Below are positions 16,545-35,615 of a stretch of 35,615 nt of DNA, one piece after another. The notes under the pieces were generated by a model. The model searched no databases. It was not told the DNA's origin and saw only the letters and a list, made by a program, of their open reading frames with translations. Source of the stretch: a virus; IMG/VR virus record IMGVR_UViG_3300027749_000283, positions 1 to 35,615 of that record. The stretch is one strand, 5' to 3'. A program made the translations under genes and the position numbers. Position 1 is the stretch's first letter; every line of letters begins with the position of its first letter.

Positions 16545-16563
16545 TTTGCCCCCTCACAAAATG

Positions 16564-20700: not shown

Positions 20701-20779
20701 TGTGTTATTCCAGGTTTCTGTTTATCGCGCAGACATGTGCCCTAATATTTTCCCCACATGGACCATTTCCCCATGGAAC

Positions 20780-21535
20780 TTAAACAATGGTCCAATAACT
20801 ACCTGACGGCACAGTGACTGTCACCCCGGAATTGATCGTTATTGGCCCTGCACTCATCGCGTTATAGCTTGTTGTCACGGTATAGTTTGTGGTGACAATT
20901 TGCTGATTCTCATAAAAAATACGATCTGGAGATCCGCCAGTTGGGTAAATCGAACCGGTGGGTCCTGTGGTGCCCGTAGGGCCAGTCGGGCCAACCAATC
21001 CTGTAGGACCTGTCGGGCCTGCAATTGTTGATGCTGCACCAGTTGGTCCTGTAGGACCGACAACTCCTTGAACGCCAGTTGGCCCAACAGCGCCAGTGGG
21101 GCCAGCGCCTGTGGCCCCAGTTGGGCCAGTCGGCCCAATATTACCATTAACCCCCGTTGCCCCTGTCGGGCCATTGCTTCCCGTTGGACCTGTAGGGCCG
21201 TTTGGCCCTGTTGGACCTGGAATTGTAGATACTGCTCCAGTCGGGCCTGTAGGGCCATTGCTGCCTGTTGCCCCTATATTGCCCGTAGGCCCAGTCGGCC
21301 CCGCAACGCCAAATCCTGTCGGGCCAGTTGGGCCTAAATTTCCCGTAGGACCTGTAGGCCCAGCATTGCCTTGCGGGCCAGTTGGGCCAGAGACTGTAGG
21401 AGCCAAATTGGCAATCTGCTGCGTAGTACCGCGAACTGAAGTGCCAGACTGCACCATCTCTACCTGTTCCGCGCCAGAAAGAGACGTGGCGACGGGCAAA
21501 TTGGGGATTTGTATATTACTGGCGTATCTAGGCAT
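20780..21535 (-). CDS. Collagen-like virion fibre, shorter paralogue
   Basis: This 251-residue protein has the same N-terminal anchor type as the 643-residue fibre ([20 protein letters not shown]). A continuous GPTGPTG tract follows (about 48-205), and then a C-terminal beta cap ([19 protein letters not shown]) like that of the 186-residue protein near the left end. It has no central globular insert. It is likely a trimeric spike or fibre with a triple-helical shaft. The ATG overlaps the upstream stop (TGATG), so translation is coupled. The 79-base gap before the longer collagen-like gene shows no clear promoter or terminator. Confidence 0.85.
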
Positions 21536-22269
21536 CAGAGCGGTCCAGTTCTTGGGATCTCAGTGAACCCACGGGGCAGACTTGGATTATTAATCACATA
21601 TCCGCCAGAGGTATAGGTCCCAGAGAATGTAGAGCTAACAAGGTCAACCTGGGTATTGTTGATGACCGTAATTGCCCAGTTCCCACTGGAATTTGCTACA
21701 CCGCCGACTTCCTGAACAGTAACACGTTGTCCAGTAATCATGCCATTGGTTGTCGCTATAGTCAGGCGAATGAGACCAGACCCGCTATTAACCGCGCCAG
21801 TAACAGTGCGATAGGTCACTGCATTCGGGTCAGTTCCCGGCAATTGATTGGTGCCATAAGGCGCTTCACCAGTTTGCTGCGTAACGCGAGGATCTTCCGT
21901 CGCAATATCATCGATACTGGTAACGCGAGTGTCACCTTGCTGAACCGGAATACCAGTTTGGGGGTTGGTTGTATTATAACCCGACACTTGGCGGCGGTCT
22001 GTCTCATCCCACTGGTATGGCTCAACACGTGGGTTGATGATCGGCATAGGATCAGCCGGGATGATAATAGCGCGAAGCTGGTTTTGCGGCGTGTCGTAGC
22101 ACGTGCGGCATACCAAAATGCGCTTGTTGATCAGCGATGCACCAGCCCAATCATACTGCCAGGTCAGATTGACACGGTTGTACCATATCGCGCAACAGTC
22201 GCAGACTGCGAATGCCTGAGGATTGCGAGAGTCTGTTCTGGCGCGGCCTGATCGGGATGCATAGCCCAT
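21535..22269 (-). CDS. Zinc-ribbon and beta-repeat virion protein
   Basis: This 244-residue protein begins with a Cys4 zinc-binding pattern: C23-x2-C26 (VCDCC) and C54-x2-C57 (CRTCY). The zinc module is followed by an extended Pro/Asn-rich region (about 60-140) and a C-terminal beta repeat (about 145-225; [19 protein letters not shown], then [15 protein letters not shown]). That repeat is related in style to the SGYNG units of the nozzle protein. The family is not recognised. It sits between an adaptor-like gene and the fibres, so a neck or fibre-attachment role is possible. AAGGGG precedes the ATG, and the stop overlaps the next start. Confidence 0.65.
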
Positions 22270-22279
22270 CTATGTCCCC

Positions 22280-22999
22280 TTACCGGAAATAGCCACCAAT
22301 CATGGGTGAAATGTACTGCTGAGCAGTTTCTATGTTCTGTTCCGCAGCGATTTGATATGATTCATCAGCCATAGGTTTAAGTCCCATAGCCATTGCAGGA
22401 GCCCATACTTGGGCAAGCCGGTAAGCTAACCCATAGGCAAAAGCCTCTAACCAGAGATACGGTATCTCAACCGTCTGGCCATTGTTATAAGCCGAATCTT
22501 GGATCTGACGCACCCGGTAGTATTTTAACGATTGAGGCCCATTATCGGTGTTTGGAACAGGCCAAAGCGTAATAGATGGGCCAGCAGATCCAGTTGAACG
22601 AGACGCGCTAATCAGCCTGTCAAACCAATAGACAGTAGGGAAACCCTGCTGTTCCTTATTGGGATAACTGGCATATTCAGTACGGCTCACAGGAAGAATG
22701 ATGCGGTCAATATTAGCGCCAGAATCATCATTTTGAACATACGCATCCAAAATCATGACCGTGTTGCCATCAACCGCATATGTTGATTGGCCCGTTACCA
22801 ATGGTGTCGTGATTAGATCGACAGCCCAAAGATTTACACCCTGATTTGACCAACGAGCGCATAGCATATTGGTGGCCATACGGGCCGCCTCCATATGCTC
22901 TTGCAACACAGAGGTATTGCGTATTCCAATCAAGTTATAGGCGTATAGCGTAAGCTCGCCTAAACCTGGATTGAACGCATAGGTGCCGGATGTGGCCAT
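22280..22999 (-). CDS. Adaptor-like neck protein, second copy
   Basis: This 239-residue protein has N-terminal helices (GELTLYAYNLIGIRN, MEAARMATNMLCARWSNQG), a beta region (STYAVDGNTVMILDAYVQN, ITLWPVPNTDNGPQSLKYY) and C-terminal helices (LWLEAFAYGLAYRLAQVW, QIAAEQNIETAQQY). This is the layout of podovirus head-to-tail adaptors and tail tubular A-type proteins. It closely parallels the 250-residue protein at 12828-13580 in layout but not in obvious sequence. The two could be successive neck rings or paralogues. AGGTAG precedes the ATG. The family assignment is from architecture only. Confidence 0.6.
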   Translation of the reverse strand: MATSGTYAFNPGLGELTLYAYNLIGIRNTSVLQEHMEAARMATNMLCARWSNQGVNLWAVDLITTPLVTGQSTYAVDGNTVMILDAYVQNDDSGANIDRIILPVSRTEYASYPNKEQQGFPTVYWFDRLISASRSTGSAGPSITLWPVPNTDNGPQSLKYYRVRQIQDSAYNNGQTVEIPYLWLEAFAYGLAYRLAQVWAPAMAMGLKPMADESYQIAAEQNIETAQQYISPMIGGYFR

Positions 23000-23011
23000 A
23001 TCGACTACCTA

Positions 23012-23899
23012 TTAGAGGGGAACATTACCAGCTTGGTTAAACGTCACATGCACTGAAGCCGTAGTGCTGGTCCCGGCATTAGTGACCTGAGCGCGAATGT
23101 ATGTTGGCGTTCCAGCCACGTTCGCCCCAATCTGCGTAGTTGCGCCCACAAGAGAGGCAACAGGGACGCTAGCCCAATTCATATCTTGATACAGAGGGGC
23201 TTGATATCCAGTGTAACCATACAAAGCGTTGTTAGGGTCATCACCAGAACATTGAATTGTGGTGGTAATGGTGCCTGTAGGATCAATCTGGCAGAAGGTT
23301 GAAGAGTCGGCCCATACATCGAGCTGGATTGGTGCCGAGTCTGCTGTGGCATTTGTGCCAATCGAGATGTTGCCAGCAGAAGCAGTGCTGATAGAAACCG
23401 AAGTCACTGTCTTGTAGCTGTACTTGCTGGAAACCGCAGAGGTGGTTACACCGGAAATGGTCTCGGAAACAACGTTCCCACCCCAATCGGTACCAACAAC
23501 CGTAAACACTCGCCCAGTTTCCGTCGCTGTGGACAGTATCTGAAGGCGGCGAGGGTTATCGAGCGTAGCTACCTGAGAAGAGTAGATCGTTCCAGAGGCA
23601 AAAGTCTGTGCCGGATTGACAAGATAAGTTCCTGTTCCGCTAACACCAGTCCCTTGCGATGTAATTACGGTGCCAGCCACCATTCCCGCGCCAGTAAGGA
23701 GCTGCGTAGGCCCGAGGGCTCCAGACGTAGCTACCGTAACCGTCATGGTGATGCCTGAAATCGATGCGGTCCCCGTGAAGTTATTGGTGACGAGCGCCCC
23801 ATTGAGGATCAACTGTCCAGCAGCAGCAGAAGTGGCGGTGCGAATTGCCGTCGCACTAGCTGCTGCAAACGGACCTAAGGAAACTTGAATAGGGCGCAT
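23012..23899 (-). CDS. Beta-rich structural protein
   Basis: This 295-residue protein is Thr/Ser/Ala/Val-rich and almost all beta by composition, with elements TGTASISGITMTVTVATSG, TETGRVFTVVGTDWGG and TPTYIRAQVTNAGTSTTASVHVTFN near the end. It includes the same GTGVSGTGTYLV kind of motif as the Gly-rich fibre C-terminus. No catalytic residues or membrane segments are visible. I do not recognise a family. Placement right after the capsid module and before the adaptor-like gene suggests a head-surface or neck protein. AAGGGAT precedes the ATG, and the upstream small gene ends five bases before it. Confidence 0.6.
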   Translation of the reverse strand: MRPIQVSLGPFAAASATAIRTATSAAAGQLILNGALVTNNFTGTASISGITMTVTVATSGALGPTQLLTGAGMVAGTVITSQGTGVSGTGTYLVNPAQTFASGTIYSSQVATLDNPRRLQILSTATETGRVFTVVGTDWGGNVVSETISGVTTSAVSSKYSYKTVTSVSISTASAGNISIGTNATADSAPIQLDVWADSSTFCQIDPTGTITTTIQCSGDDPNNALYGYTGYQAPLYQDMNWASVPVASLVGATTQIGANVAGTPTYIRAQVTNAGTSTTASVHVTFNQAGNVPL

Positions 23900-23904
23900 A
23901 TCAT

Positions 23905-24069
23905 TTATCCCTTTTTGCCTGCACGAGCGGCAGCGGCATTATCCACGAGATTTGGATAGGGGCGACCAGCAGCCCTAGCCATTGCCTTAGCAGATTGCTT
24001 CTGCTTGCGATCAAGATGCTTCACTTTAGCATCTTTTGGCGCATCTTTCTCCCAAAAAGGTTTTTCCAT
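23905..24069 (-). CDS. Small basic protein, 54 residues
   Basis: This small gene reads MEKPFWEKDAPKDAKVKHLD, continues with RKQKQSAKAMARAAGRPYPN and ends in NAAAARAGKKG. It is Lys/Ala/Arg-rich with no membrane segment. It starts two bases after the stop of the DUF6321-type gene (TGATATG), and an AAGGTGGG-like sequence lies upstream. The frame is fully open and the amino-acid composition looks natural, so it is likely real. The many Lys and Arg residues suggest nucleic-acid or acidic-protein binding, which is an inference. Function is unknown. Confidence 0.65.
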   Translation of the reverse strand: MEKPFWEKDAPKDAKVKHLDRKQKQSAKAMARAAGRPYPNLVDNAAAARAGKKG

Positions 24070-24070
24070 A

Positions 24071-24310
24071 TCAACAATCCCACCTTCGAAGCGCTTTATT
24101 AATACGGCTATCTGGATCAGCAGCCTTTGCGGAGCCAGTTAACTTCCGTTTGGCTCCAGTCATTCTTGCACAGAATGAGTCTTTCCGCGACCCCCCTTCT
24201 GGCTGGGGTCTTTTAATATCATGACCTTGCGCCCTAAGGGATGCGCGCCCCTTCTCATTGAGGCCGCCTTCTGGGTTCTTGCCTTCTTTGCGTGTCCATG
24301 CAGCGGTCAT
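24071..24310 (-). CDS. DUF6321-type small basic protein
   Basis: This 79-residue protein reads MTAAWTRKEGKNPEGGLNEK and later SFCARMTGAKRKLTGSAK and INKALRRWDC. The WTRKEGKNPEGGLNEKGR signature is that of the DUF6321 family found in many phages, whose function is unknown. Zinc or nucleic-acid binding has been guessed but not shown. The start at 24310 is chosen because AGGAG lies just upstream and the protein begins exactly at the family signature. A longer frame to 24439 runs through the terminator and into the next gene, so it is rejected. It is the first gene after the intrinsic terminator that closes the capsid module. Confidence 0.75.
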   Translation of the reverse strand: MTAAWTRKEGKNPEGGLNEKGRASLRAQGHDIKRPQPEGGSRKDSFCARMTGAKRKLTGSAKAADPDSRINKALRRWDC

Positions 24311-24323
24311 AGAGGTCTCCTGT

Positions 24324-24349
24324 AAAAACGGGGGCACATGGCCCCCGTT
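24324..24349 (-). terminator. Rho-independent terminator after capsid module
   Basis: A perfect 9-bp stem (24327-24335 with 24341-24349, AACGGGGGC/GCCCCCGTT) with a 5-base loop is followed on the minus strand by a T-run (24328-24324). It lies between the 85-residue gene and the DUF6321-type gene. Some transcripts from the capsid genes should end here, which would lower expression of the tail genes relative to the capsid protein. Confidence 0.85.
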
Positions 24350-24377
24350 AGTCTCACACCAGATCCGGGAGCTGATC

Positions 24378-24635
24378 TTAGTAGTGAGAAGACTTGGCGC
24401 GGGGCGTACCACCGCTAGCAGACGACAGAACCTTGCCACCGCTCATACGGGGCTTGCGACCCATATCAGCCTTGGCCTTCTTGCCATCCATCTTGACGGT
24501 CTTGCCGCCGCGCTTGAAGCCTTCAGTCTTGTTCTTGGCATCAGCCGCAACCTGAGACTGGCCACCAGCGTAGAAATCACCGCCGAGCGACTTGTCGGGG
24601 CTATTCTTGGGTTCGAGCTTGAACTTACCCTTCAT
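24378..24635 (-). CDS. Small Lys/Gly-rich protein with GRKPRxSGGK motif
   Basis: This 85-residue basic protein has no recognised domain. It carries FKRGGKTVKMDGKK and GRKPRMSGGKVLSS, the second nearly identical to a stretch in the 352-residue protein upstream (GRKPRKSGGKAEM). GGAGGG precedes the ATG. It is the last gene of the capsid module before the terminator. Small Lys-rich proteins here could be head-cement or internal DNA-binding proteins, but there is no direct evidence. Confidence 0.65.
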   Translation of the reverse strand: MKGKFKLEPKNSPDKSLGGDFYAGGQSQVAADAKNKTEGFKRGGKTVKMDGKKAKADMGRKPRMSGGKVLSSASGGTPRAKSSHY

Positions 24636-24647
24636 AACATCCCTCCA

Positions 24648-25217
24648 TTAGGACGCGAGGTTGATGCCTTGGATATAGGACACCGTGAGAGTGCCTACAC
24701 CAGAGCCGGTGTTGGTAGAAGTGACGAGGATTTGAACATCAGTAGGGCCACCCGTTTGAAAAGTGGCATTGCTGACATTGTCCCAGTTGGCAATCTGAGC
24801 AGTACCCGTGCCCGTAGCAACTGTTACCTGGCCCTTAGTGCCACCAGCAACCGCGCCAGCAGCAGTGAACGCCGTAGCGGCGCTGGTGCCAGCAGTTGCG
24901 CCGATACCAAGAGTGGTAGCCGCGCCAGTCCAGGCAGTCGTGACCATCAGATAGATGTCAAGAATCTGGCTCTGAGCCGGAAGAGTGATCGAGGTAACGC
25001 CGCTTGCCTGCGTAATGACAGCACTCTGGGCCATCTGAACATAACCAATGTTCTGAGTGCCAATCGTGCCACCAAGGCCCGCAAGATTGCCAGTGCCATC
25101 ACTGTTGAAAACAGTGCCAGCAAAGACAGGACCAGTGAAGGTGGTGCCCGGAGTAACCGGGCTCCCGTTCGCGTTGGGGTAAAACCCCGGCTGGATATCG
25201 TTAATGGTCGTAGCCAT
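24648..25217 (-). CDS. Beta-rich capsid-associated protein
   Basis: This 189-residue protein is Ala/Thr/Gly/Val-rich beta sequence (ASGVTSITLPAQSQILDIYL, VTTAWTGAATTLGIGATAG, VQILVTSTNTGSGVGTLTVS). It has no recognised motif. It lies directly after the major capsid gene, with an AAGGAG site, so it is likely a head decoration or other abundant structural protein. It lacks the N-terminal anchor of the collagen-like fibres. Function is inferred from position. Confidence 0.6.
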   Translation of the reverse strand: MATTINDIQPGFYPNANGSPVTPGTTFTGPVFAGTVFNSDGTGNLAGLGGTIGTQNIGYVQMAQSAVITQASGVTSITLPAQSQILDIYLMVTTAWTGAATTLGIGATAGTSAATAFTAAGAVAGGTKGQVTVATGTGTAQIANWDNVSNATFQTGGPTDVQILVTSTNTGSGVGTLTVSYIQGINLAS

Positions 25218-25230
25218 GAGCTATTTCTCC

Positions 25231-26145
25231 TTACGAGGTGGGGAAAGAGCCGTAGATGGAACGCCAATTGTAGTACCCAAACGAGTAGCGCTCGTAGCCC
25301 TTAACAAGCAGATTGTCTGTGACAAAATCCACCTGCATATCGCTTTCGAACTTCACTCGCTCCATGTACGACAGGCCATCGATGTTCGTCAGCAGGAACC
25401 AGGCGTAAGCCGAGGTCAAGAAGTCATTGACCATATAACCTTCGGGGAGCCCGCCAGCCGTCATCATGATCGCATTGACGTCATTGTCCGCAGTGCCGGG
25501 GCGCAGTTCCGTCTTCGTCAGGCGGATAGCAACCGGCTCAAGCTGCGGGGGAACCACAAGCTTGCGACCACGAGCGAAGATCTTCAGACCAGCCTGATCC
25601 TTGAAGTTCGTCCTGATGGCAATCATTGAGTTCAGAAGCGTGGACTCATTTAGATCCACCTGAGTGGAGGGCTGGTTCGCAACCGTGCTGCCATCGATAG
25701 GATGAGAGCTAGAGCAGAGAGCCTGACCATCGCCACCGACAGAACCATTATAGGTCTGAGCAGTGTTCAGGACGTTCGCGCCGTAAATTTCCTTGGTCTG
25801 ATGGAAGCTCTCAATCAGGCCGAGGTTCGAAGGCATGAACTGGGTCTTGTAGAGGTTGTCATCAATCGCCTTGCGAGTGATGGCATAACCAAGAGCAATC
25901 TCAGTGTGCTCCTGGTTGTAAACGTAACGCTCACCAGCGCCGTTATCAAAGGCAGTCTGGCCGCCTTCGGTCTTAAGCTGAGCGAGACCCAGAAAACGCA
26001 TCTCAGCGGTGCGCTCCAGAGCCATCTTCGACTCATGCTTGGTGAAAATCTTGTCGTACTGAGACGGGATCATCTCGTACTTGCCTTCAACTCCGCGCAA
26101 ACCGGGAAGCAGAAGGTCCTTAATCGCTGAAAGATTAACAGCCAT
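25231..26145 (-). CDS. Major capsid protein
   Basis: This 304-residue protein has the features expected of an HK97-fold major capsid protein of the Mu gpT-like type: a short N-terminal arm, SQYDKIFTKHESKMALERTA, a strand with YVYNQEHTEIALGYAITRKAI that leads into the long spine-helix region, a P-loop-like axial part with TNFKDQAGLKIFARGRKLVV, and a C-terminal beta section ending in RVKFESDMQVDFVTDNLL and GYERYSFGYYNW. Size fits. It follows a separate leader region, is flanked by two small structural genes, and has AGGAG upstream of ATG. Position downstream of the scaffold-like gene and the portal supports the call. The exact fold family was not verified by search. Confidence 0.8.
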   Translation of the reverse strand: MAVNLSAIKDLLLPGLRGVEGKYEMIPSQYDKIFTKHESKMALERTAEMRFLGLAQLKTEGGQTAFDNGAGERYVYNQEHTEIALGYAITRKAIDDNLYKTQFMPSNLGLIESFHQTKEIYGANVLNTAQTYNGSVGGDGQALCSSSHPIDGSTVANQPSTQVDLNESTLLNSMIAIRTNFKDQAGLKIFARGRKLVVPPQLEPVAIRLTKTELRPGTADNDVNAIMMTAGGLPEGYMVNDFLTSAYAWFLLTNIDGLSYMERVKFESDMQVDFVTDNLLVKGYERYSFGYYNWRSIYGSFPTS

Positions 26146-26160
26146 GACTTTCTACTCCTG

Positions 26161-26751
26161 TTAGACGCCAGTCAGCGCTTTGGTGCTGACATAGTTGAAC
26201 GCGACAATCGCCTTGGCATAAGCACCAGTGGAGGTGCCATTTGCGCCCGGCGGGTCAGTGAGGAGCGACACAACCTTGAACGGGAAGCTGGTATCAGATG
26301 TGCCAAGAGTGGCAAGATACGCGCCAGAAATGCCGTTCGCCGTGTTGCCAGTACCGATGTTGAAGCCAACGGCAGAGTTCACATAACCCTGATCAACGCT
26401 GACGTTGCCAAACTGGGCAACAAACTTGGCGTTGGGATCATTGATGATGTAACCCTCAACGACATTGCCGGAAGCGACATCGGTGCCGGGCCAATAGTTG
26501 GACCAAACGGTGCGCTTCTGCGAAACCGAGAGATACTTGCAGCCGATGAAAACGCCAGCTACCTGCGTGTTGCCGCTAGAAGCAGTCGTCACACCAACAA
26601 CAACGTAGCCGTTAGCGTCGGGGTTGACGGGGTCACCATAGAAGATGGGGCTTGCATTGTAAGCAATCTGGACTGCGACTTGCTCATAAGTCGGGGCAGA
26701 ACCAGTGCCGCTATACTGCTGGAAACCGTTATAGGCTTGGGTATTTGCCAT
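26161..26751 (-). CDS. Head decoration or capsid-associated protein
   Basis: This 196-residue protein is Asn/Thr/Val/Gly-rich with a beta-strand pattern (YEQVAVQIAYNASPIFYGD, GYVVVGVTTASSGNTQVAG, NVVEGYIINDPNAKFVAQF). It shows no enzymatic motif. It precedes the major capsid gene by 15 bases and has AAGGAG just upstream. Proteins of this type before a capsid gene are commonly minor head proteins, so head decoration is the most likely role. It is the first gene after the leader region with the CCGGGGA repeats. Confidence 0.6.
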   Translation of the reverse strand: MANTQAYNGFQQYSGTGSAPTYEQVAVQIAYNASPIFYGDPVNPDANGYVVVGVTTASSGNTQVAGVFIGCKYLSVSQKRTVWSNYWPGTDVASGNVVEGYIINDPNAKFVAQFGNVSVDQGYVNSAVGFNIGTGNTANGISGAYLATLGTSDTSFPFKVVSLLTDPPGANGTSTGAYAKAIVAFNYVSTKALTGV

Positions 26752-26867
26752 GACGGAATCTCCTTATTCAGGAGGCTCGTCATCTCGCGCCGGGGAGATT
26801 CAGAAGCCGGGGAATTTGAACCATTCACGCCGGGGAATGGGATAAGTCCCTAAGGACTTCGAAAGTA
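26752..26867 (-). promoter_or_regulatory. Leader of capsid module with three GCCGGGGA repeats
   Basis: The untranslated stretch before the head genes holds three copies of GCCGGGGA (26789-26796, 26806-26813, 26829-26836; TCCCCGGC on the transcribed strand). An imperfect palindrome AAGTCC-CTAA-GGACTT lies at about 26843-26858. The copies are 17 and 23 bases apart and sit between the putative promoter and the first ribosome site. They could bind a protein or form alternative RNA structures. The role is unproven. Confidence 0.4.
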
Positions 26868-26896
26868 AAATTACATGTATAATTCATTAATGTAAA
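26868..26896 (-). promoter_or_regulatory. Weak candidate promoter for capsid module
   Basis: On the minus strand a TTTACA element (26896-26891; five of six to the sigma-70 -35 box) is followed after 17 bases by TAATTT (26873-26868; three of six to the -10 box). A second -10-like TATACA lies nearby, and an 8-base palindrome TACATGTA covers the spacer. The location after a terminator-like hairpin and before the head genes fits a module promoter, but the motif match is poor. Confidence 0.25.
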
Positions 26897-26918
26897 GGGG
26901 CCGCTAAATGCGACCCCT
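26894..26918 (-). terminator. Terminator-like hairpin upstream of capsid module
   Basis: On the minus strand AGGGGTCGC-ATTTA-GCGGCCCCT forms a 9-bp stem with one G-U pair, followed by TTTA. On the plus strand the same position is a C-A mismatch, so the RNA hairpin is favoured in the direction of the operon. The U-tract is short, so termination is probably partial. It separates the scaffold-side genes from the capsid genes. Confidence 0.5.
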
Positions 26919-26933
26919 CCAAATTGCAAACTT

Positions 26934-27539
26934 TTAGTCGTTTGGAACCTCAATTGGGGAAAATCCCTTCTTGATTTGCGGCCTTGCACTGGGATGATCA
27001 CGGGTCAAAGTGCCATCCGGAGTTGCGTTAAGCTGTTGTTCTTTAACGCGAACTTGGTTTCGAGCCTTTCTCAACTCATTGGCACGAGACTCGTCAGAAA
27101 TAACTGCCGGGCGCTGCATTAAAACCATCCCCTTACGCTCAATAGTGGGGTAATTTCCTTGCATTGGCATCATTTCAGGGTGCCTGCTGGTCGAAACTGG
27201 GTCCCAACCCTGGCGCGCCAACTGAACCTGATATGCCGGGTCTTCCTGACCAAGCAATGTCCGGCGCTTCCACTCATATTCCCACCCATCAGGTGCACGC
27301 GGGGTACGAAATTCATCCGCACCCTCATCAACGCCATCAGAATGGCCGCGAATTTCGGCAGCGCGACGGGCAGCAGCAGCTCTGGGATCTTCTTCCCGCA
27401 TTGCAGCGCGCATAGGCGGGCGTTCAACAGCGGTTTCCCTTACAGCAACTGCCTCAAGGACAGCATCCTGCTCATCAATAACAGGAGGGGCTTCTCGCCG
27501 AGGCGGGCGACCGCGACGTTTTGCAATTGAATCAGTCAT
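26934..27539 (-). CDS. Basic protein with AT-hook-like N-terminus
   Basis: This 201-residue protein begins with KRRGRPPRREAPP, which resembles an AT-hook (GRP core) for binding DNA minor grooves. The rest is charged, with REEDPRAAAARRAAEIRGH and WEYEWKRRTLLGQEDPAYQ, and a QPxxR-rich end. The family is not recognised, but similar proteins lie near portal and scaffold genes in podovirus-like phages. Its end precedes the terminator-like hairpin. GAGGAG precedes the ATG. A role in head assembly or DNA packaging is a guess. Confidence 0.6.
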   Translation of the reverse strand: MTDSIAKRRGRPPRREAPPVIDEQDAVLEAVAVRETAVERPPMRAAMREEDPRAAAARRAAEIRGHSDGVDEGADEFRTPRAPDGWEYEWKRRTLLGQEDPAYQVQLARQGWDPVSTSRHPEMMPMQGNYPTIERKGMVLMQRPAVISDESRANELRKARNQVRVKEQQLNATPDGTLTRDHPSARPQIKKGFSPIEVPND

Positions 27540-27549
27540 TTAACTCTCC

Positions 27550-28461
27550 TCAGTTCAGACGGTTGGGTTCGCGCATCTTGTTCCGGTAGTACTCCTGAGG
27601 AGTAATCCCACTAATTCGAGCAGCTTCAACCTCGTCTCGAGTCAAATGAATGACGCCGGGGCGATTAGGGGTATCAATTGGCTGCCTAGATACTGGCGCG
27701 GATGGCGGACCAGAACGCCTCTGCTTGCTTGACGAGGCGTCTGACATCACATTCTCCACTTCGGGGATGGATCGACGCTTAGAGTTGATTCCCATCCTGT
27801 TTTCGACAAATTCAAAGTATGCATCTGACTCCGGCGCAATGCCGTAATCAATAGCATCCTCATGAGCCCGCGCCATGACACGGATTGACCTAGCATCCGG
27901 CAAAGCATCTCGGTGCTGCCTAAGCCATTCCGCTGAACGAGGCGTCACACGGTCAATAAGGGTATCAACCGTCAATTCTCCTTGCGGGGCTGCCTGCGGC
28001 TGCAACCGAGGCTGCTGTTTCATCTCTTCGAACCCACGCTCAAGCTGGCGTAGATTTGTAATATTAGCCGTCATCTGCTCTTGAAGCTCAGCAGCCTTGT
28101 CAAAGTCGCCAATAGCCATAGCATCGCGAAGATGAGACTTTAGGATTTCTTGATCTCGGCGAACCGACTCGATGGCTCCATTAACAAGATGAAGATTGCT
28201 GTCGCTGGCTTCATTAGTAGCCATGCGAGCCTGCTCAGTTGCATGGCGGGCCATAGCTTCGGCTTCCATGCGAGCTTTGCGTTCCTTTTCAAGCTTTTTA
28301 TTAAGCTTTTTCAAGGCTTTATCGACATCTTTGCCAGAATCTTCATCATCAGCATTTACTGGCTCATCAACAATCTCAACAACTGGTTCGCCAGTTTTGG
28401 ATGCCTTTACCGGAGGGGCATCGTCAAGATTAAATGCAATCTGTTCGTCATCACTAGACAT
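27550..28461 (-). CDS. Probable scaffolding protein
   Basis: This 303-residue protein is acidic at the N-terminus and helical, with a Lys/Glu-rich coiled coil (about 45-110: KALKKLNKKLEKERKARMEA, ARHATEQARMATNEA) and further helical segments. The C-terminus is basic and ends in ARISGITPQEYYRNKMREPN. Acidic, coiled-coil, Gln/Arg-rich proteins made just before the capsid protein are typically scaffolds or internal head proteins that guide capsid assembly, and a basic C-terminus fits binding to the capsid protein. The start at 28461 is chosen over 28473 because GGAG lies just before it. The longer form has no ribosome site. Confidence 0.6.
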   Translation of the reverse strand: MSSDDEQIAFNLDDAPPVKASKTGEPVVEIVDEPVNADDEDSGKDVDKALKKLNKKLEKERKARMEAEAMARHATEQARMATNEASDSNLHLVNGAIESVRRDQEILKSHLRDAMAIGDFDKAAELQEQMTANITNLRQLERGFEEMKQQPRLQPQAAPQGELTVDTLIDRVTPRSAEWLRQHRDALPDARSIRVMARAHEDAIDYGIAPESDAYFEFVENRMGINSKRRSIPEVENVMSDASSSKQRRSGPPSAPVSRQPIDTPNRPGVIHLTRDEVEAARISGITPQEYYRNKMREPNRLN

Positions 28462-28472
28462 GGGATTCTCCA

Positions 28473-28865
28473 TTACCAGACACGGTCAGGTTGATCGATG
28501 CGGCCCTTGATGTTCACATCATCAATCATGCGGCACAAGACATTGTTGACTGTAATGCTCCAACCATCAGATGGGCGAAACACAATCCAGTCGCCTTCAT
28601 TGATCTCAAGGCCATCAAACCACTGGCCAGAGCTATCTTTAAAAGCTTGAGGACCCTTTTTGACAACAAGTCCAACTTTGGATTGATAACGGTCCTCATC
28701 GGTTGTTTGGCTAGTCAAGATGATCCCACTTTTTGTTTTTTGGGGGCGAATGTAGACCGCCACCAGTATCTGATTGTTGAATACTTCGACCGATGAGATA
28801 TCAGCCATTTCAGTTCTAATAGTATCAGCCGGATCTACTTCGTGCTGCATAGGCATAAACGGCAT
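28473..28865 (-). CDS. GroES-like co-chaperonin
   Basis: This 130-residue protein contains a Cpn10-type domain from about residue 25: VEVFNNQILVAVYIRPQKTKS, GIILTSQ, then VGLVVKKGPQAF, INEGDWIVFRPSDGW and NVLCRMIDDVNIKGRI. GroES family proteins cap the GroEL chamber. T4 gp31 is a phage example needed to fold the capsid protein. The mobile-loop region (about 50-62, TKSGIILTSQTTDED) is present. The start at 28865 is chosen because AGGGGGA lies upstream and the family-like N-terminus begins there. An in-frame extension to 28919 overlaps the previous gene. It lies between the small coiled protein and the scaffold, fitting capsid folding. Confidence 0.7.
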   Translation of the reverse strand: MPFMPMQHEVDPADTIRTEMADISSVEVFNNQILVAVYIRPQKTKSGIILTSQTTDEDRYQSKVGLVVKKGPQAFKDSSGQWFDGLEINEGDWIVFRPSDGWSITVNNVLCRMIDDVNIKGRIDQPDRVW

Positions 28866-28876
28866 ATTCAATCCCC

Positions 28877-29092
28877 CTACTGTTCCTTGCCATTCACAAT
28901 GGCATCTGCTTCTTCGCAAAACTCTAAAGCTGTGCGAAGTCCTTCAATCTTACCTACTTGGTGTCGGTAAGCCGAAAAGTCAAAACCGTTTATCTGATAA
29001 GCGCTGACAAGGGCCTCTTTTAGCCGCTCAATCTCAGCATTCAGGAGCTTTTGTAGTTCATATTGATAATACGCTTGATATGTTGTCGCCAT
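28877..29092 (-). CDS. Small helical protein, unknown function
   Basis: This 71-residue protein is mostly helical and charged (YQYELQKLLNAEIERLKEAL, LRTALEFCEEADAIV). It has no membrane segment or recognised motif. AGGGGG precedes the ATG. It lies just before the GroES-like gene and after the double-hairpin intergenic region, so it is the first gene of that segment. It may be a head-assembly accessory. Confidence 0.6.
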   Translation of the reverse strand: MATTYQAYYQYELQKLLNAEIERLKEALVSAYQINGFDFSAYRHQVGKIEGLRTALEFCEEADAIVNGKEQ

Positions 29093-29126
29093 AAACTGCC
29101 CCCTGACAGGCCCCCATGTAACTGAA

Positions 29127-29161
29127 GGGTGGAGACGCGAAGGGGGGTCGCATCTCCACCC
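29127..29161 (-). other. Strong RNA hairpin in intergenic region
   Basis: The minus strand folds GGGTGGAGATGCG with CGCGTCTCCACCC, a 13-bp stem containing one G-U pair that would be a C-A mismatch on the plus strand. The loop is about nine bases. No U-tract follows, so it is a structured element, perhaps RNA processing or pausing, rather than a clear intrinsic terminator. Confidence 0.65.
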
Positions 29162-29163
29162 AA

Positions 29164-29190
29164 TTTGCAGCTTAAGCGCTACGCTGCAAA
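29164..29190 (-). terminator. Hairpin next to stop codon, possible weak terminator
   Basis: An 8-bp perfect stem (29164-29171 with 29183-29190, TTTGCAGC/GCTGCAAA) with an 11-base loop begins two bases after the stop codon of the 352-residue gene. A short T/A tail follows, then the larger hairpin. Together they may attenuate readthrough or protect the upstream mRNA end. Confidence 0.45.
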
Positions 29191-29191
29191 C

Positions 29192-30250
29192 TCATTTGCC
29201 CACTTTTTGGATGCCAGACTTCTTGGAAGCCATTTCAGTCTTCTCAAGGCGACCTTCACCAGATCCCGCGCCAGCGTCCATATCTTTATATGACCGGTAT
29301 GTACGGCCACCAGACTTGCGAGGCATCGGGGGCATTCCAGGAGGGCCAGCGGGGCCAGCCGGACCCGGCATAGGGATAGGCATGGGCATGGGCATGGGCA
29401 TGCCAGCGCCCGGAGGCGGTGCATTAGGCGGAACCTGAATAGGAATGCCACCAGGAGCACCGGGGCCAATGCCCGGAGGAGGAGTAGGCCCACCCATCGG
29501 ATCAGGAGGCATAGCACCCGGATGTCCCGCGCCAATGTTGATGTTGATGTGAGTCTTGCCTTTGCCAGCAGCCTTTCCGCCGTGAGCCTTGGCAGTGCGC
29601 CCACCGGGAACAGCGCCGGGAACTTTGCCGGGATAACCGGGGCCAGAGAAGACCTGACCGCCAGTAGCGCGCTTGGTTCTAGCAGAAGGCTTCACCATCT
29701 TCTTGATGAGCGCCTTATCGGCGGCAACATCTTCATGCTTCTCAGCAGCGCCACCCTTCTTCAATCCAACGGCGCGAGCTGGGGAAATTGACCCTTTCTT
29801 GACGCCGGTAAAGCCCAAGGTAGCGCCGGGGACATCACCAACGGCCTGAGCGCGTTGCATCATGGCGTTTGCGCCAGCCATAGGGCCACCAACCATCTTC
29901 TTGGCGCGGCCACCAGATTTCATGCCGCCAATGTGCTTGTCGCCTTCGCGATACTCATTGGCTTTCTTCAAATCTTTATTGATGAAGCGGTCCACCAAAG
30001 GCATTTCGGCCTTGCCACCAGACTTGCGGGGCTTGCGGCCCATGTTAGGGGCAGCGCAGGCACCTTCAACCTTGCCACCAGACTTGTATGCCCGACGAGA
30101 AACAGGGCGCATGCCGGTCTTCACATCGGCCTGAAGCATTTCAGGCGGCACAAAAGTGGATGAATCAACTTTCTCAAGTGGGCGATCCGCTGTAAGGCGT
30201 TGAGCCTTAGCTCTCATGGCCGCACGGGCCTGTTTTGCCATATCTGACAT
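29192..30250 (-). CDS. Lys/Gly/Pro-rich protein with repeated SGG motifs
   Basis: This 352-residue protein is a low-complexity basic protein. It has several SGG or KGG elements (YKSGGKVEG, GRKPRKSGGKAEM, MKSGGRAKK, PRKSGGRTYRSYKD) and a Pro/Gly/Met-rich stretch (about 245-320, PMPMPMPMPIPMPGPAGPAG). A KTHININIGAGHPG segment breaks this up. No domain is recognised. The GRKPRKSGGK part is nearly repeated in the 85-residue capsid-side protein. It is expected to be unstructured and may bind DNA or other virion proteins. The start has AGGAG within a 14-base palindrome. Confidence 0.6.
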   Translation of the reverse strand: MSDMAKQARAAMRAKAQRLTADRPLEKVDSSTFVPPEMLQADVKTGMRPVSRRAYKSGGKVEGACAAPNMGRKPRKSGGKAEMPLVDRFINKDLKKANEYREGDKHIGGMKSGGRAKKMVGGPMAGANAMMQRAQAVGDVPGATLGFTGVKKGSISPARAVGLKKGGAAEKHEDVAADKALIKKMVKPSARTKRATGGQVFSGPGYPGKVPGAVPGGRTAKAHGGKAAGKGKTHININIGAGHPGAMPPDPMGGPTPPPGIGPGAPGGIPIQVPPNAPPPGAGMPMPMPMPIPMPGPAGPAGPPGMPPMPRKSGGRTYRSYKDMDAGAGSGEGRLEKTEMASKKSGIQKVGK

Positions 30251-30256
30251 GACTAC

Positions 30257-30270
30257 TCCTAGTACTAGGA
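30257..30270. promoter_or_regulatory. 14-bp palindrome covering a ribosome site
   Basis: TCCTAGTACTAGGA is a perfect inverted repeat lying between the ParB-fold gene stop and the next start. It contains the AGGA of the Shine-Dalgarno sequence for the 352-residue gene. Folding would be short-lived as an RNA hairpin, but a protein could bind the DNA or RNA and block translation. Confidence 0.5.
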
Positions 30271-30660
30271 TTACCGGCGTCCCGGTTGGCGATTTGCCTT
30301 TTTAGACGTTACCACAAGCGCATGTTTAACAATAGAGCCACCATTCGCTTTACTTGGCCACGTAATGACCGGAACTTTTTTTATTCCCAATTGCTTTGCG
30401 GCATGAGCCCTGTGACGGCCATCTTGCCCATTGCCGGGGTATAAGGCTAATGGATCTAATTTGTGCCCATGCTCAAGTTTCTTTTTAAAATGATGAATAA
30501 GGTGTTTATCATCATGGTCCATGTTCAGAGGCTTGGATTTCCGCAAAAACTCATCAGGAGACATTTGCGACAATTTTCCGCCGGTCTTCTCAAAGTCTCC
30601 ATGCTCAGACCAATCCTTATGGTCTCGCATTTGATACATATGTAAACTAGAACTTGGCAT
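30271..30660 (-). CDS. ParB/sulfiredoxin-fold protein
   Basis: This 129-residue protein has a ParB/Srx-like motif near the C-terminal half: HLIHHFKKKLEHGHKLDPLA, then GQDGRHRAHAAKQLGIKKVP and VITW. The DGRHRAHAAKQLG element matches the nucleotide-binding motif of ParB-like domains (consensus G-x-R/H-R-x-x-A). Such domains in phages can act as CTP/ATP-binding switches, kinases or nucleases; the activity here is unknown. There is no helix-turn-helix domain, so it is not a classical partition protein. The start at 30660 (ATG, AGAGG upstream) is chosen over an in-frame TTG at 30666. It lies just downstream of the PRTase-propeller gene, a possible partner. Confidence 0.7.
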   Translation of the reverse strand: MPSSSLHMYQMRDHKDWSEHGDFEKTGGKLSQMSPDEFLRKSKPLNMDHDDKHLIHHFKKKLEHGHKLDPLALYPGNGQDGRHRAHAAKQLGIKKVPVITWPSKANGGSIVKHALVVTSKKANRQPGRR

Positions 30661-30674
30661 GGTCAAAACCTCTG

Positions 30675-32267
30675 CTACTTTTTAGATATAGCCCACATTC
30701 GATTATCATACGAGTACACAAAGATTAGGTTTCCATCCGACACCGGGGTGCATGTAAGCCTCTCTGGAAACGCATACCGATACATCATCTCAAAATTAAT
30801 GGGGTCTATCGCCATTAACTCGCCCGCAGATGTGCCAAACCAAACCAACCCATCAATTAACGCTGGCGAGGAGTGTATCTTTTCTTCAACATCTATCTGA
30901 CCCATGACCTGACAAGTTTCCATGTTGATCATGTACATGTTGCCATCAGCCGATCCGCAAAATGCTATATCACCAACAATCAAGGGCCTAGAATAGTTAA
31001 TATCGTCAGTTTCTAACTTTAGCAGAACCTCACCTGTCAGATAGTCCCATATGTAGATCGCATCAAAGGCACATGCGACAGCACGAGATTTCCATGCAGC
31101 ACAATGGTACTTAGTTGGGCCGCCAGTTTTAAGATGTGAGATAACCGCGCCAGTGTCAGGGTGAAGCGTAAACAAATCAGAGTCATTTGTGCCAGTTATA
31201 ACATATGCATTGCCATTATACTCATGTACAATTGGAGATGAATGCAAATACGTGGGCACTGTTTTGTTCCAAATTGCTTCACCTTTTAAGTTTAAACAAG
31301 ATAAAGAACCTCTTTTTCCTAAGATATTATATTCCATTCCAATGTATAACTTGTCGTTATGAATAACAGGACTAGAACCAATCCAATTGCAATACTTGTG
31401 TGAATAAATTTTTTTCCCAGTTTTTGCATCAAGACAATACAATATTCCATCATACGCACCAAAATACACTTTTCCATTGTGAACTACTGGAGATGAAACG
31501 ACACCTTTCCCAGTTATGTCTTTGGTTTGAAATTGCCATTCAATACGGCCAGTGTTTTTTTCAACACCCCATACGATGCCAGAGTCTGATCCAAAGATCA
31601 GTCTATCCTCAAATATGACAGGCGTTGATTTGGCTACAGCAAAGTCCAATTTTGGTTTTGGAGATGCAAATGACCAAATAGTCTCATATTCTGCGATTGG
31701 AGCATGAAAGTTAGAAGTTTGGAGGTTAAAACTGTTAAGGTCAAATAGCGTCGTAACTTCTATTTTGTTACGTACACGCCAATTAATGCCAGCCGTTGAC
31801 CGAAAATCTACAAGGCAAAACAAACCAACAACTTTATGCCCTTCAGCTTCAAGTTTTTTGCGCGCTAACTCAGCGTTCTTTCCTGAATTTATTGAATCAT
31901 CAATGAGCAAGATTGGCTTACCGTTTGGCTCGCCCTCGATGATCTTGCCACCCATATGTTTTTTACGTTTGATCCTGACAATTAAAGCGGAGGTATCTTT
32001 GCCCCGCTTTCCTGCTTCTAAAACAAAAGCAGAGACCATAGGCACGCCCGCCATCTCAATGCCAGCCATTTGAAAATCTAAATCTTCAAACATGTCCCAG
32101 AATTGAGCCGATATGTCTTGAAGCACACGGCTATCCAAGACAGCGGAACGCATGTCCACCATCCATTCAACGCGCTTGCCATGCATATTTTTGTAAATTT
32201 TATTGTTTGTCGACCTGTAGATGCACTTTTTTTCAATAAAAGACGCAGTTTCCCCCAATACCGGCAT
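30675..32267 (-). CDS. Phosphoribosyltransferase fused to PQQ-like beta-propeller
   Basis: This 530-residue protein joins two domains. Residues about 30-185 form a type I phosphoribosyltransferase-like domain. The PRPP-binding loop is PILLIDDSINSGKN (118-131), with the paired Asp (D123, D124) and SG, and a conserved strand ahead of it (SALIVRIKRK). Residues about 195-530 hold eight repeats of PQQ/BamB type, each about 40-45 residues, such as SSPVVHNGKVYFGAYDG (259-275), SSPVIHNDKLYIG (298-310) and SSPALIDGLVWFGTSAG (466-482). No signal peptide or membrane segment is seen. PRTases move phosphoribosyl groups from PRPP to bases, and propellers usually bind ligands or proteins. I know of no established phage protein combining them. 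The gene is more AT-rich than its neighbours. GGGGG precedes the ATG. Confidence 0.75.
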   Translation of the reverse strand: MPVLGETASFIEKKCIYRSTNNKIYKNMHGKRVEWMVDMRSAVLDSRVLQDISAQFWDMFEDLDFQMAGIEMAGVPMVSAFVLEAGKRGKDTSALIVRIKRKKHMGGKIIEGEPNGKPILLIDDSINSGKNAELARKKLEAEGHKVVGLFCLVDFRSTAGINWRVRNKIEVTTLFDLNSFNLQTSNFHAPIAEYETIWSFASPKPKLDFAVAKSTPVIFEDRLIFGSDSGIVWGVEKNTGRIEWQFQTKDITGKGVVSSPVVHNGKVYFGAYDGILYCLDAKTGKKIYSHKYCNWIGSSPVIHNDKLYIGMEYNILGKRGSLSCLNLKGEAIWNKTVPTYLHSSPIVHEYNGNAYVITGTNDSDLFTLHPDTGAVISHLKTGGPTKYHCAAWKSRAVACAFDAIYIWDYLTGEVLLKLETDDINYSRPLIVGDIAFCGSADGNMYMINMETCQVMGQIDVEEKIHSSPALIDGLVWFGTSAGELMAIDPINFEMMYRYAFPERLTCTPVSDGNLIFVYSYDNRMWAISKK

Positions 32268-32272
32268 GTTTA

Positions 32273-33697
<1,425 letters not shown>

Positions 33698-33708
33698 GGC
33701 AAAGATCC

Positions 33709-34668
33709 TCAGCGGGTCATGAGAAGATGGTGAATGATTTCAAGAGCTTTGTGGAGAGAATCTGGCTTAGCATTAGCCGCGCCACCGCGTTTCATGCCCT
33801 CTTCCTCTTTGCGCTTAGCCATAAGGGCTTTGTCAGCACGAAAGAAGTCGGCAGCACTTTCAGGATTGCCCCAGTTTACCGGAGCGCCACCCATCGGCTT
33901 GTTAACCAACTCGTTGTTAGACTGGTAATCCCCGCCAGAGAAGATGCGAGACAAAACGCTAGAATCGTCACGAGGGCGAGCAGGAGGCAAACCAGCGCGG
34001 TCTCCAACTTCTCTGGTTGATGCCATACGTTGCCTTGCAACTTGTGCAGCCTGCTGTGCCGCTGTGGGCATTGGAGGCCCCTGCATTTCAGGAGGCCCCT
34101 GAAACTCAGCAGGCCCTTGGACTTCTGGCATATCAGGATAATTAGGGGGCATTGGAGGCCCTTGGACCTCTGGTGCAGCAGTGGGTCGGTCAGCCAACGC
34201 ACCAACGCCAGTAGCGCCCGCGCCAAGGGCTAAACCTCCAACAGTGCCCTGTGCAGCGCGCTGAGCGGGAGTAAATACAGGGATCTTGCTTCCCCATTTA
34301 AGATCCGGTCTTGGCAAAGGCGCGCCTGTGCGGGGAGCAACATTTTGGATCAGATTGCCAGTTGACGGGTTTCTTAAAACTTCTGCTGGCCTTGTTAAGA
34401 ACTCAAATGCTTGGCGCGGCGCAGCGGCAATTCTCTCGCCTAAACCCATGGCAGAGCGGGCAATTGCCGGAGCAGCTTCAGCAGCAGCCGCGCCAGCCGC
34501 ACGTGCGGGTGCAGCACCGGCAGCCAAGCTGAGAGCAGAAGTACGCGCTGCCTGCGCAGCATTCTGGCGAGCAGCAACATTAGCACGTTCAGCCGCAACA
34601 GCCGGGTCAACCCCCTGGCTGATAAGATAGTCACGCATTTGTTCTGCGGAGGGAAGACCAAAAGCCAT
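33709..34668 (-). CDS. Ala/Pro-rich protein with terminal KRGG tail
   Basis: This 319-residue protein has a helical N-terminus (PSAEQMRDYLISQGVDPAVA), an Ala-rich middle (about 40-85), a Pro/Gln-rich linker with repeated PEVQGP/EFQGP/EMQGP units (about 165-200), a conserved-looking NWGNPESAADFFRADKALMA stretch and a basic C-terminus (MKRGGAANAKPDSLHKALEI, ending HHLLMTR). The family is not recognised. The ATG overlaps the portal stop (TAATG). Placement right after the portal suggests an internal head or portal-associated protein. Confidence 0.6.
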   Translation of the reverse strand: MAFGLPSAEQMRDYLISQGVDPAVAAERANVAARQNAAQAARTSALSLAAGAAPARAAGAAAAEAAPAIARSAMGLGERIAAAPRQAFEFLTRPAEVLRNPSTGNLIQNVAPRTGAPLPRPDLKWGSKIPVFTPAQRAAQGTVGGLALGAGATGVGALADRPTAAPEVQGPPMPPNYPDMPEVQGPAEFQGPPEMQGPPMPTAAQQAAQVARQRMASTREVGDRAGLPPARPRDDSSVLSRIFSGGDYQSNNELVNKPMGGAPVNWGNPESAADFFRADKALMAKRKEEEGMKRGGAANAKPDSLHKALEIIHHLLMTR

Positions 34669-35615
34669 TACAGTTCTCCAGTCTTCGTGCCGTCAAGAGT
34701 TGGCTCATTGCCCTCAAGACGCTGAAGCATTGCGGGGTCTACTAACTGCTGAGCTGTAGCTAGCCCATCAGGGTTACGCATGACTTCTTCAGCTAATTTG
34801 ATAGCGGCAAGACGCTCGCGGCTCTCGCGGTCACGCTTGCGGTTGATAGCATCAAACATCGTATCTTGAGCGCGCTGTTGGATTTCCATCTGCTGCGTCT
34901 GGACCTGTGCCATTTTGGCGGGATCGCCCTGATTGCGATCTGTCTCCATTTGAAGCCTCTGTTGATCCAACTGGATTTTTGCTTGAGACTCCTGCGCCCG
35001 TGTCTGGCTGTCCATCATGCGAGCGGCAGCATTGCTCTTGTCATTCTGGGCTTTAGCCATGGCTTGCATAAGCTCTGGCGGGGGCTTGCCCTGCGCAGAC
35101 GGCGGGATCATAAACTGTTGCGGGTTAGACCAACCCAACGCCTGCAAAGCCGCTGTATCGACCGCAATGGGATCGTAGAGCGACGGGTTAGACGCCACTA
35201 ACTGCTTCAGAGCCAGAACCTTCATCAGGCGCTGGGTCTGGCTTGACGTGTTGGGATCAGCTTGCGGGACAAAATAGTAGTTCTCAAGAGCATCCAAGAA
35301 TGTCTTTTCGTCCCACGGATACGCAGCCTTGCGGCGCTTCTGCCAGAAGCTCTCAGGATGATCCTTGAAGCACTCAACCAGCATCTCAAATTCTTCAGAT
35401 TGAGCTGCATGGAGGCGCTTGTGAACCGAGTTAAGAACCTTTTGGGCCTGCTCAATCATGGCCAGTGTGGTACCCACGGGCGCATCAGGCTTGCCTTCAG
35501 TCACCATGACCTCAGACGTGCCGCCAACGCGCATGCCCGTCTCAGCCATCTGAACGACAAGATTCATTAGAGCGCCAGAAGGCTCCTTATAGGGCAAAGG
35601 CATGATAGCTTGGTT
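34668..35615 (-). CDS. Portal protein, C-terminal part (P22-like)
   Basis: The reading frame is open past the right edge (codons for NQAI precede an internal Met at 35603), so only the last 315 residues are visible. The segment GGTSEVMVTEGKPDAPVGTT, followed by LAMIEQAQKVLNSVHKRLHA and AQSEEFEMLVE, is typical of P22-type portal proteins, which form the dodecameric DNA channel at one head vertex. The C-terminal part is a Gln-rich helical stretch (QSQAKIQLDQQRLQMETDRN, VQTQQMEIQQRAQDTMFDA), as expected for a portal barrel or coiled tail. P22 portal has about 725 residues, so roughly half is missing here. The stop overlaps the next start (TAATG). It is probably preceded by terminase genes outside the window. 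Confidence 0.8.
   Translation of the reverse strand, partial: NQAIMPLPYKEPSGALMNLVVQMAETGMRVGGTSEVMVTEGKPDAPVGTTLAMIEQAQKVLNSVHKRLHAAQSEEFEMLVECFKDHPESFWQKRRKAAYPWDEKTFLDALENYYFVPQADPNTSSQTQRLMKVLALKQLVASNPSLYDPIAVDTAALQALGWSNPQQFMIPPSAQGKPPPELMQAMAKAQNDKSNAAARMMDSQTRAQESQAKIQLDQQRLQMETDRNQGDPAKMAQVQTQQMEIQQRAQDTMFDAINRKRDRESRERLAAIKLAEEVMRNPDGLATAQQLVDPAMLQRLEGNEPTLDGTKTGEL

What the first reader, a model, noticed from the sequence alone, without database searches (positions are those of the whole stretch)
30675..32267. Phosphoribosyltransferase fused to an eight-repeat PQQ-type propeller
The sequence shows an intact PRPP-loop motif (LLIDDSINSGK at 120-130) followed by about eight 40-45-residue PQQ-like blades. 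PRTases act in nucleotide salvage, and some have been linked to conflict or stress systems. Propellers bind ligands or proteins. I know of no described phage protein with this pairing. As inference, the propeller could sense or recruit a target while the PRTase makes, removes or attaches a nucleotide, either in the infected cell or carried in the virion. An alternative is a degenerate PRTase used only as a binding fold.
Basis: partly seen in the sequence, partly recalled or inferred. Interest (0 to 1): 0.8.

Follow-up and report, generated by a model that had tools for sequence, protein, structure and literature searches.

The report
Phage orotate-type phosphoribosyltransferase fused to beta-propeller
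A group of uncultured phages carries a conserved two-part protein, a nucleotide-making enzyme domain with an apparently intact active site joined to an eight-bladed propeller that probably binds a partner, encoded in the stretch of the genome where related phages keep proteins thought to be injected into the host; the pairing looks undescribed, but what it does has not been tested.

Summary
ORF 30675-32267 (-) is one intact 530-aa gene: residues 1-183 have the fold of an orotate phosphoribosyltransferase (OPRT) with catalytic DD, loop R98/K102/H104 and E111-G112 kept; residues 194-530 form an eight-bladed PQQ/BamB-type propeller. It is not an assembly error: a second, 99.7%-identical strain has it, and four more phages carry 530-aa homologues (62-72% identity), three of them traced as far as MCP and GroES at the same locus. 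A second, divergent fusion family occurs in two other (Nrd/PhoH-bearing) phages. None was found in 50,697 GenBank phages, in 72,556 plasmids, or by pattern-limited scans of 84,980 prokaryotic genomes. The gene sits, without room for its own promoter, between portal and capsid genes, in a hypervariable slot where relatives carry ADP-ribosyltransferase, PBECR nuclease and other 'polyvalent' effector domains. The nearest standalone PRTases lie in ThyX/NrdA/NrdB cassettes. Best reading: a catalytically competent OPRT-type enzyme, captured from phage nucleotide metabolism, with the propeller as a docking module, expressed late as accessory cargo. Whether it is packaged, what base it uses and what the propeller binds are open. 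New variant of a known kind.

The parts
30675..32267 (-). PRTase-propeller gene, 530 aa
   Evidence: homologues of exactly 530 aa in L094, L170, L171, L191
31719..32267 (-). OPRT-type phosphoribosyltransferase domain, residues 1-183
   Evidence: TIGR00336 E 7e-18; AF model vs M. tuberculosis OPRT Z 20.9
31932..31976 (-). OPRT flexible catalytic loop equivalent, residues 98-112 RIKRKKHMGGKIIEG
   Evidence: R98, K100-M105, I109-G112 invariant in 4 fusions; K102, E111, G112 invariant in 17 relatives
31878..31910 (-). PRPP-binding loop LLIDDSINSGK, residues 120-130
   Evidence: D123, D124 invariant in 17 relatives
30678..31688 (-). eight-bladed PQQ/BamB-type beta-propeller, residues 194-530
   Evidence: Pfam PF13570 8.7e-44, PF13360 1e-21; AF model and VIA-align Z 43 to Cake8
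32273..33697 (-). upstream slot gene g474 (hypervariable; a positional counterpart in L191 has a Cell Wall Hydrolase domain)
30271..30666 (-). downstream ParB-like 131-aa gene, 8 bases after the fusion gene; not found after the fusion in L170, L171 and L191
   Evidence: phrog_1033 E 0.001
29192..30250 (-). conserved gene g352 that bounds the variable slot
34668..35603 (-). C-terminal part of the portal gene (cut by the contig end) that bounds the slot on the other side
   Evidence: phrog_1216 portal; 77% identical to part of a 775-aa ORF in L092

Best explanation
The gene makes a two-domain accessory enzyme of a tailed phage. Shown: the N-terminal 183 residues have an OPRT fold with the PRPP loop and catalytic loop conserved under purifying selection; the C-terminal 337 residues form a closed eight-bladed propeller that is more conserved than the enzyme; the gene is embedded 5-8 bases from its neighbours in the portal-to-capsid gene block, in a slot that in sister phages holds effector-type cargo. 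Inferred: it is transcribed late with the structural genes, works as an OPRT-like dimer (the loop of one subunit completing the other's site), makes a nucleoside monophosphate from PRPP and a free base (orotate or a related base most likely), and uses the propeller to dock on a fixed partner (host or virion protein), so that the activity is placed at one site, as one of several alternative accessory cargoes of this slot.
For: OPRT fold and motifs. Closest standalone PRTases adjacent to NrdB in six phage records, some with NrdA and ThyX next door. Window vs L094: amino-acid identity 72% with third-position divergence about 0.57 and dN 0.20 with saturated dS. Propeller identity 76% vs PRTase 66%, or 68 vs 54% for L191. 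No promoter-like site on the - strand upstream of the gene, gaps of 5 and 8 bases. GC 0.41 against about 0.54 of most neighbours and 0.46-0.50 against 0.55-0.64 in homologues, so the gene looks separately acquired. Slot contents ART-PolyVal, PBECR5, LPD23, GP88, 2OG-oxygenase plus DUF6817 in sister phages.
Against: Late-operon position is odd for an enzyme that feeds DNA replication. The OPRT loop lysine 100 is Ile/Val and the last PRPP-loop Ser/Thr is Asn, and TIGR00336's curated cut-off is not reached (65 of 106.8 bits), so orotate use is unproven. No ligand or partner of the propeller is known. The two fusion families sit in different gene neighbourhoods.
Confidence: 0.5

Rival explanations
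1. Virion-delivered effector: the protein is packaged in the head like T4 Alt or MuF/polyvalent proteins and ejected with the DNA; the propeller finds a host target and the PRTase makes, consumes or senses a nucleotide to blunt a defence or reprogramme the cell at entry.
For: Same slot between portal and capsid genes carries ART-PolyVal, PBECR5, LPD23 and GP88 domains in sister phages; PRTase domains, some fused to MuF, are a described part of phage polyvalent proteins (PMC5512222); late-operon embedding; the second fusion family also lies beside collagen-like, probably structural, genes.
Against: It lacks the C-terminal [IVL]x[RKH]AL-type motif found in many slot proteins (26 of 67 last-45-residue windows against 2.5% of internal windows; motif chosen after looking); other untagged slot genes (2OG-oxygenase, DUF6817) look like ordinary accessory genes. 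The PRTase is OPRT-like, and membership in the distinct 'invasive element' PRTase group could not be tested.
Confidence: 0.3
2. Degenerate PRTase fold used only for PRPP or nucleotide binding or as a dimerisation platform, with the propeller doing the work (for example an assembly or receptor protein).
For: Propeller more conserved than the PRTase; Ile/Val at the K100 position, Asn in place of the last PRPP-loop Ser/Thr; position among head genes.
Against: R98, K102, H104, E111, G112, D123, D124 all kept across family-A fusions whose PRTase domains are 53-66% identical to the window's; intact relatives sit in nucleotide cassettes; the gene is missing from most sister phages, so it is not an essential assembly part.
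Confidence: 0.15
3. Two adjacent genes joined by a frameshift or assembly artefact.
For: None beyond the unusual pairing.
Against: Identical gene in a 99.7%-identical record, four further 530-aa homologues, and a divergent fusion family in two phages.
Confidence: 0.01

Closest known systems
Orotate phosphoribosyltransferase (PyrE), M. tuberculosis 5hki/5hkf type; phage pyrE auxiliary genes of cyanophages
   Same: Type I PRTase fold, PRPP DD motif, R/K/H catalytic loop, EG motif; fold Z 20.9; pyrE is a known cyanophage metabolic gene (PMC9983427)
   Different: About 21-24% identity, below the pyrE cut-off, K100 replaced by Ile/Val, fused to a propeller, encoded among head genes; apart from cyanophage OPRTs in the tree (support 98/97 for the fusion clade)
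Standalone phage PRTases of ThyX/NrdA/PRTase/NrdB cassettes (L180, L193-L198, this work)
   Same: 27-31% identity over the domain, same CIxR...RR...DFQIAGxE...IRKxxKxYG...EG...DD(L)xNS pattern
   Different: No propeller, Tyr instead of His104, nucleotide-synthesis neighbourhood
BamB / AfsK / YxaL / AASDH (ACSF4) PQQ-like propellers
   Same: Eight-bladed propeller; BamB Z 34-39 (rmsd 2.7-3.3 A), Cake8 design Z 43; passes the Pfam ACSF4 cut-off
   Different: N-terminal PRTase partner instead of a lipoprotein signal or other domain; BamB and PQQ-dehydrogenase model cut-offs not reached
Phage polyvalent proteins and their PRTase domain (Iyer et al. 2017, PMC5512222)
   Same: Phage PRTase encoded in the portal/head neighbourhood together with ART, PBECR and ParB-like cargo
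   Different: OPRT-type PRTase; the paper mentions no propeller; a two-domain protein without LPD/MuF domains or the slot's C-terminal motif

Membership tests
Type I phosphoribosyltransferase, OPRT (PyrE) branch | PRTase fold closest to OPRT | tested here: met
   Top structural hits are all OPRTs, Z 20.9, rmsd 1.9 A, 165 aligned
Type I phosphoribosyltransferase, OPRT (PyrE) branch | PRPP-binding acidic pair in the PRPP loop | tested here: met
   D123/D124 invariant in 17 relatives
Type I phosphoribosyltransferase, OPRT (PyrE) branch | OPRT catalytic loop R-K-x-x-K-x-H | tested here: inconclusive
   R98, K102, H104 kept, but the second position (K100 of Salmonella OPRT, from knowledge) is Ile/Val
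Type I phosphoribosyltransferase, OPRT (PyrE) branch | Score above the curated pyrE equivalog cut-off | tested here: not met
   TIGR00336 65 bits, cut-off 106.8; so it is not filed as PyrE
Type I phosphoribosyltransferase, OPRT (PyrE) branch | Orotate plus PRPP to OMP activity | not testable with these tools
   needs assay
PQQ-like eight-bladed propeller (Pfam Beta-prop_ACSF4/PQQ_2) | Score above the Pfam gathering cut-off | tested here: met
   PF13570 150.7 bits vs 133; PF13360 78.1 vs 27.6
PQQ-like eight-bladed propeller (Pfam Beta-prop_ACSF4/PQQ_2) | Eight four-stranded blades | tested here: met
   AF model and Cake8 superposition
BamB outer membrane assembly lipoprotein | Score above the TIGR03300 cut-off | tested here: not met
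   89 bits vs 285; the N-terminus is a PRTase domain
PQQ-dependent dehydrogenase | Score above the family cut-off | tested here: not met
   TIGR03075 51 bits vs 480
Phage polyvalent (virion-injected) protein | Encoded in the portal/head neighbourhood, in a slot that holds other effector domains in relatives | tested here: met
Phage polyvalent (virion-injected) protein | PRTase of the distinct invasive-element group with the ComFC-like arginine | tested here: inconclusive
Phage polyvalent (virion-injected) protein | Presence in the virion / injection | not testable with these tools
   needs virion proteomics

The most novel reading that the evidence does not exclude
A new class of phage-delivered metabolic effector: an OPRT-type enzyme packaged with the genome and aimed at a fixed host structure by an eight-bladed propeller, altering nucleotide signalling or pyrimidine supply at the entry site. 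Its partner choice may be tuned through the variable blade 3, and fusions may have arisen twice in unrelated phages.
Probability: 0.25. Interest if true: 0.75.

Novelty: new variant of a known kind. Interest (0 to 1): 0.52.

Why it matters
Phage PRTases are known as metabolic genes or as enigmatic domains in injected proteins, with no agreed role for the latter. A conserved OPRT-propeller protein with recognisable kin in ribonucleotide-reductase cassettes offers a defined, expressible protein with which to ask what a PRTase does in a phage effector slot, and a propeller that could be used as bait to find the host partner.

Tried and rejected
Assembly or frameshift artefact: rejected. Bacterial origin or bacterial relatives of the fusion: two pattern-limited genome-contig scans found none; plasmid tblastn gave mostly propeller-only hits, a few reaching into the end of the PRTase region, none covering 80% of the query; absence is not proof because the patterns were narrow. 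Cyanophage-type OPRT as direct parent: the viral OPRT loci were 24-31% identical and unfused, and the eight placed in the tree stand apart. One common origin for the two fusion families: unresolved (AU test p 0.43, long branch). RNA families and tRNAs in the window: none. Own promoter for the gene: none seen on the - strand upstream. PADLOC was not searched. One row of alignment A5 and the short segments of A6 were chosen by me only to widen the search patterns; they were not used as evidence. The domain-to-domain orientation of the full model is not reliable (pTM 0.64).

Full report
1. What is there. The window is a 35,615-base virus record; its portal gene is cut by the contig end, so it is not a complete genome. 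ORF 30675-32267 on the - strand is a single 530-aa reading frame.

2. Is the fusion real? Yes. IMG/VR record 3300010158_001713 matches window 16260-33930 at 99.7% (29 mismatches, 2 gap openings) and has the same gene, identical. Searches widened step by step found further fusions of exactly 530 aa: L094 (3300037189), L170 (3300043409), L171 (3300032287), all 72% identical, and L191 (3300043429), 62% in the full alignment. A divergent second family, L192 (3300042938; 25% over residues 36-375) and L213 (3300020159; 89% to L192), has the same two-domain order and again 530 aa. Among 50,697 annotated phage records no match covers 80% of the protein.

3. PRTase half. Profile hits: Pfam Pribosyltran 0.0011 (below its cut-off), NCBIfam pyrE 7e-18 (below its curated cut-off), phrog_32468 'phosphoribosyl transferase' 5e-8. 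The domain folded alone (17-row alignment, pLDDT 88, pTM 0.85) superposes best on OPRTs: 5hki_B Z 20.9, rmsd 1.9 A, 165 residues; 2p1z_B Z 20.4; Salmonella OMP synthase 1lh0 Z 17.5. Over 17 relatives R40, K102, E111, G112, D123 and D124 are invariant, and R98 is Arg or Lys. From established knowledge of Salmonella OPRT, R98, K102 and H104 correspond to R99, K103 and H105 of the flexible loop, while K100 is replaced by Ile/Val. So the site looks competent but is not a textbook PyrE.

4. Relatives of the PRTase half. The closest standalone proteins (roughly 25-31%) are in other phages (L180-L182, L193-L198). In six records the PRTase gene lies directly beside NrdB, in L196 with NrdA on the other side, and in L193 with ThyX upstream. 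L183-L185 have two PRTase genes in tandem. The record of the second fusion family holds both a standalone PRTase next to NrdB and the fusion about 7 kb away. This points to a nucleotide-supply ancestry. In the tree, fusion family A is one clade (98/97), apart from the cyanophage-type OPRTs; the place of family B is unresolved.

5. Propeller half. Pfam ACSF4 8.7e-44 and PQQ_2 1e-21. The full model (pLDDT 86, pTM 0.64) shows strand 194-201 and the C-terminal strands closing blade eight, with seven complete blades between. Best fold matches: Cake8 Z 43.2, rmsd 1.6 A; BamB Z 34-39, rmsd 2.7-3.3 A. Neither BamB nor PQQ-dehydrogenase cut-offs are met. The propeller is better conserved (76%) than the PRTase (66%), with blade 3 variable (37-44%) and blades 1 and 5-8 at 64-95%. 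Third codon positions differ at about 0.57 of sites against 0.09-0.20 at second positions, dN 0.20 with saturated dS: the whole protein is under purifying selection.

6. Surroundings. Gene order in transcription direction: portal (cut by the contig end), g319, g474, PRTase-propeller, ParB-like 131 aa, g352, GroES, g307, g201, g196, major capsid protein. Gaps are 5 and 8 bases; in L191 the start overlaps the upstream gene. No promoter-like site lies on the - strand ahead of it. GC is 0.41 against about 0.54 for most neighbours (GroES and the ParB-like gene are also low, 0.46 and 0.44), and the same contrast holds in the homologues, so the gene looks separately acquired. The capsid gene has at least 598 relatives in IMG/VR. 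In them the slot between portal and g352 is hypervariable: ART-PolyVal (L118, L125, L128), PBECR5 (L118), LPD23 (L132), GP88 (L145), phage lysozyme (L146), 2OG-oxygenase plus DUF6817 (L129). Most sister phages lack the PRTase-propeller, so it is accessory.

7. How it most likely works. Shown: OPRT-type domain with conserved catalytic residues, eight-bladed propeller, accessory slot, tight embedding among head genes. Inferred: late expression, dimeric enzyme making a nucleoside monophosphate from PRPP and a base, placed by the propeller at a partner. The main rival is a virion-delivered effector, as proposed for PRTase domains of polyvalent proteins (PMC5512222); the slot supports it, the missing C-terminal slot motif speaks weakly against it. 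A purely structural role for a dead PRTase is less likely, given residue conservation and patchy distribution.

8. Novelty. Literature searches found no description of a PRTase-propeller protein, and the polyvalent-protein paper does not mention propellers. Both halves belong to known families, and phage pyrE genes are known (PMC9983427). I therefore rate it a new variant of a known kind with unknown but testable function.

Noticed in passing
L089-L168, slot between portal and g352; window 30271-33697: Slot proteins of this phage group share a short C-terminal motif ([IVL]x[RKHNQ][AT][LMI]x[ILVM], e.g. GGSIVxRALxxxSKKA; in 26 of 67 last-45-residue windows vs 2.5% of internal windows, motif chosen post hoc) and often an N-terminal xALxxARxxxAxGG; a possible capsid-packaging or ejection tag.
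   Followed up: partly
L118:675-5864, L125:1222-5433, L128:2644-4970: ART-PolyVal ADP-ribosyltransferases (and PBECR5 in L118) occupy the same locus in sister phages.
   Followed up: partly
L183, L184, L185 around 5700-7150: Tandem pairs of divergent PRTase genes in phages; possible heteromeric PRTase.
   Followed up: no
L193-L198 and G011, G013, G014, G016-G018: Phage ThyX/NrdA/PRTase/NrdB cassettes with an OPRT-like PRTase beside ribonucleotide reductase.
   Followed up: partly
L192:5149-5910: 253-aa gene directly upstream of the second fusion family, with a Hint-like look by eye (KETQIKMADGSLKYVDDIVPGDWI) but no Pfam match, next to collagen-like genes.
   Followed up: no
window 28473-28919: Phage GroES co-chaperonin in the head gene block, low GC (0.46) like the fusion gene.
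   Followed up: no
window 15456-16544: beta-1,4-glycosyltransferase-like gene (phrog_13126, E 4e-94) in the tail/structural region.
   Followed up: no
window 32460-32690: Low-complexity Glu/Gly/Pro/Ala-rich repeats near the C-terminal end of g474, seen by eye in the sequence.
   Followed up: no
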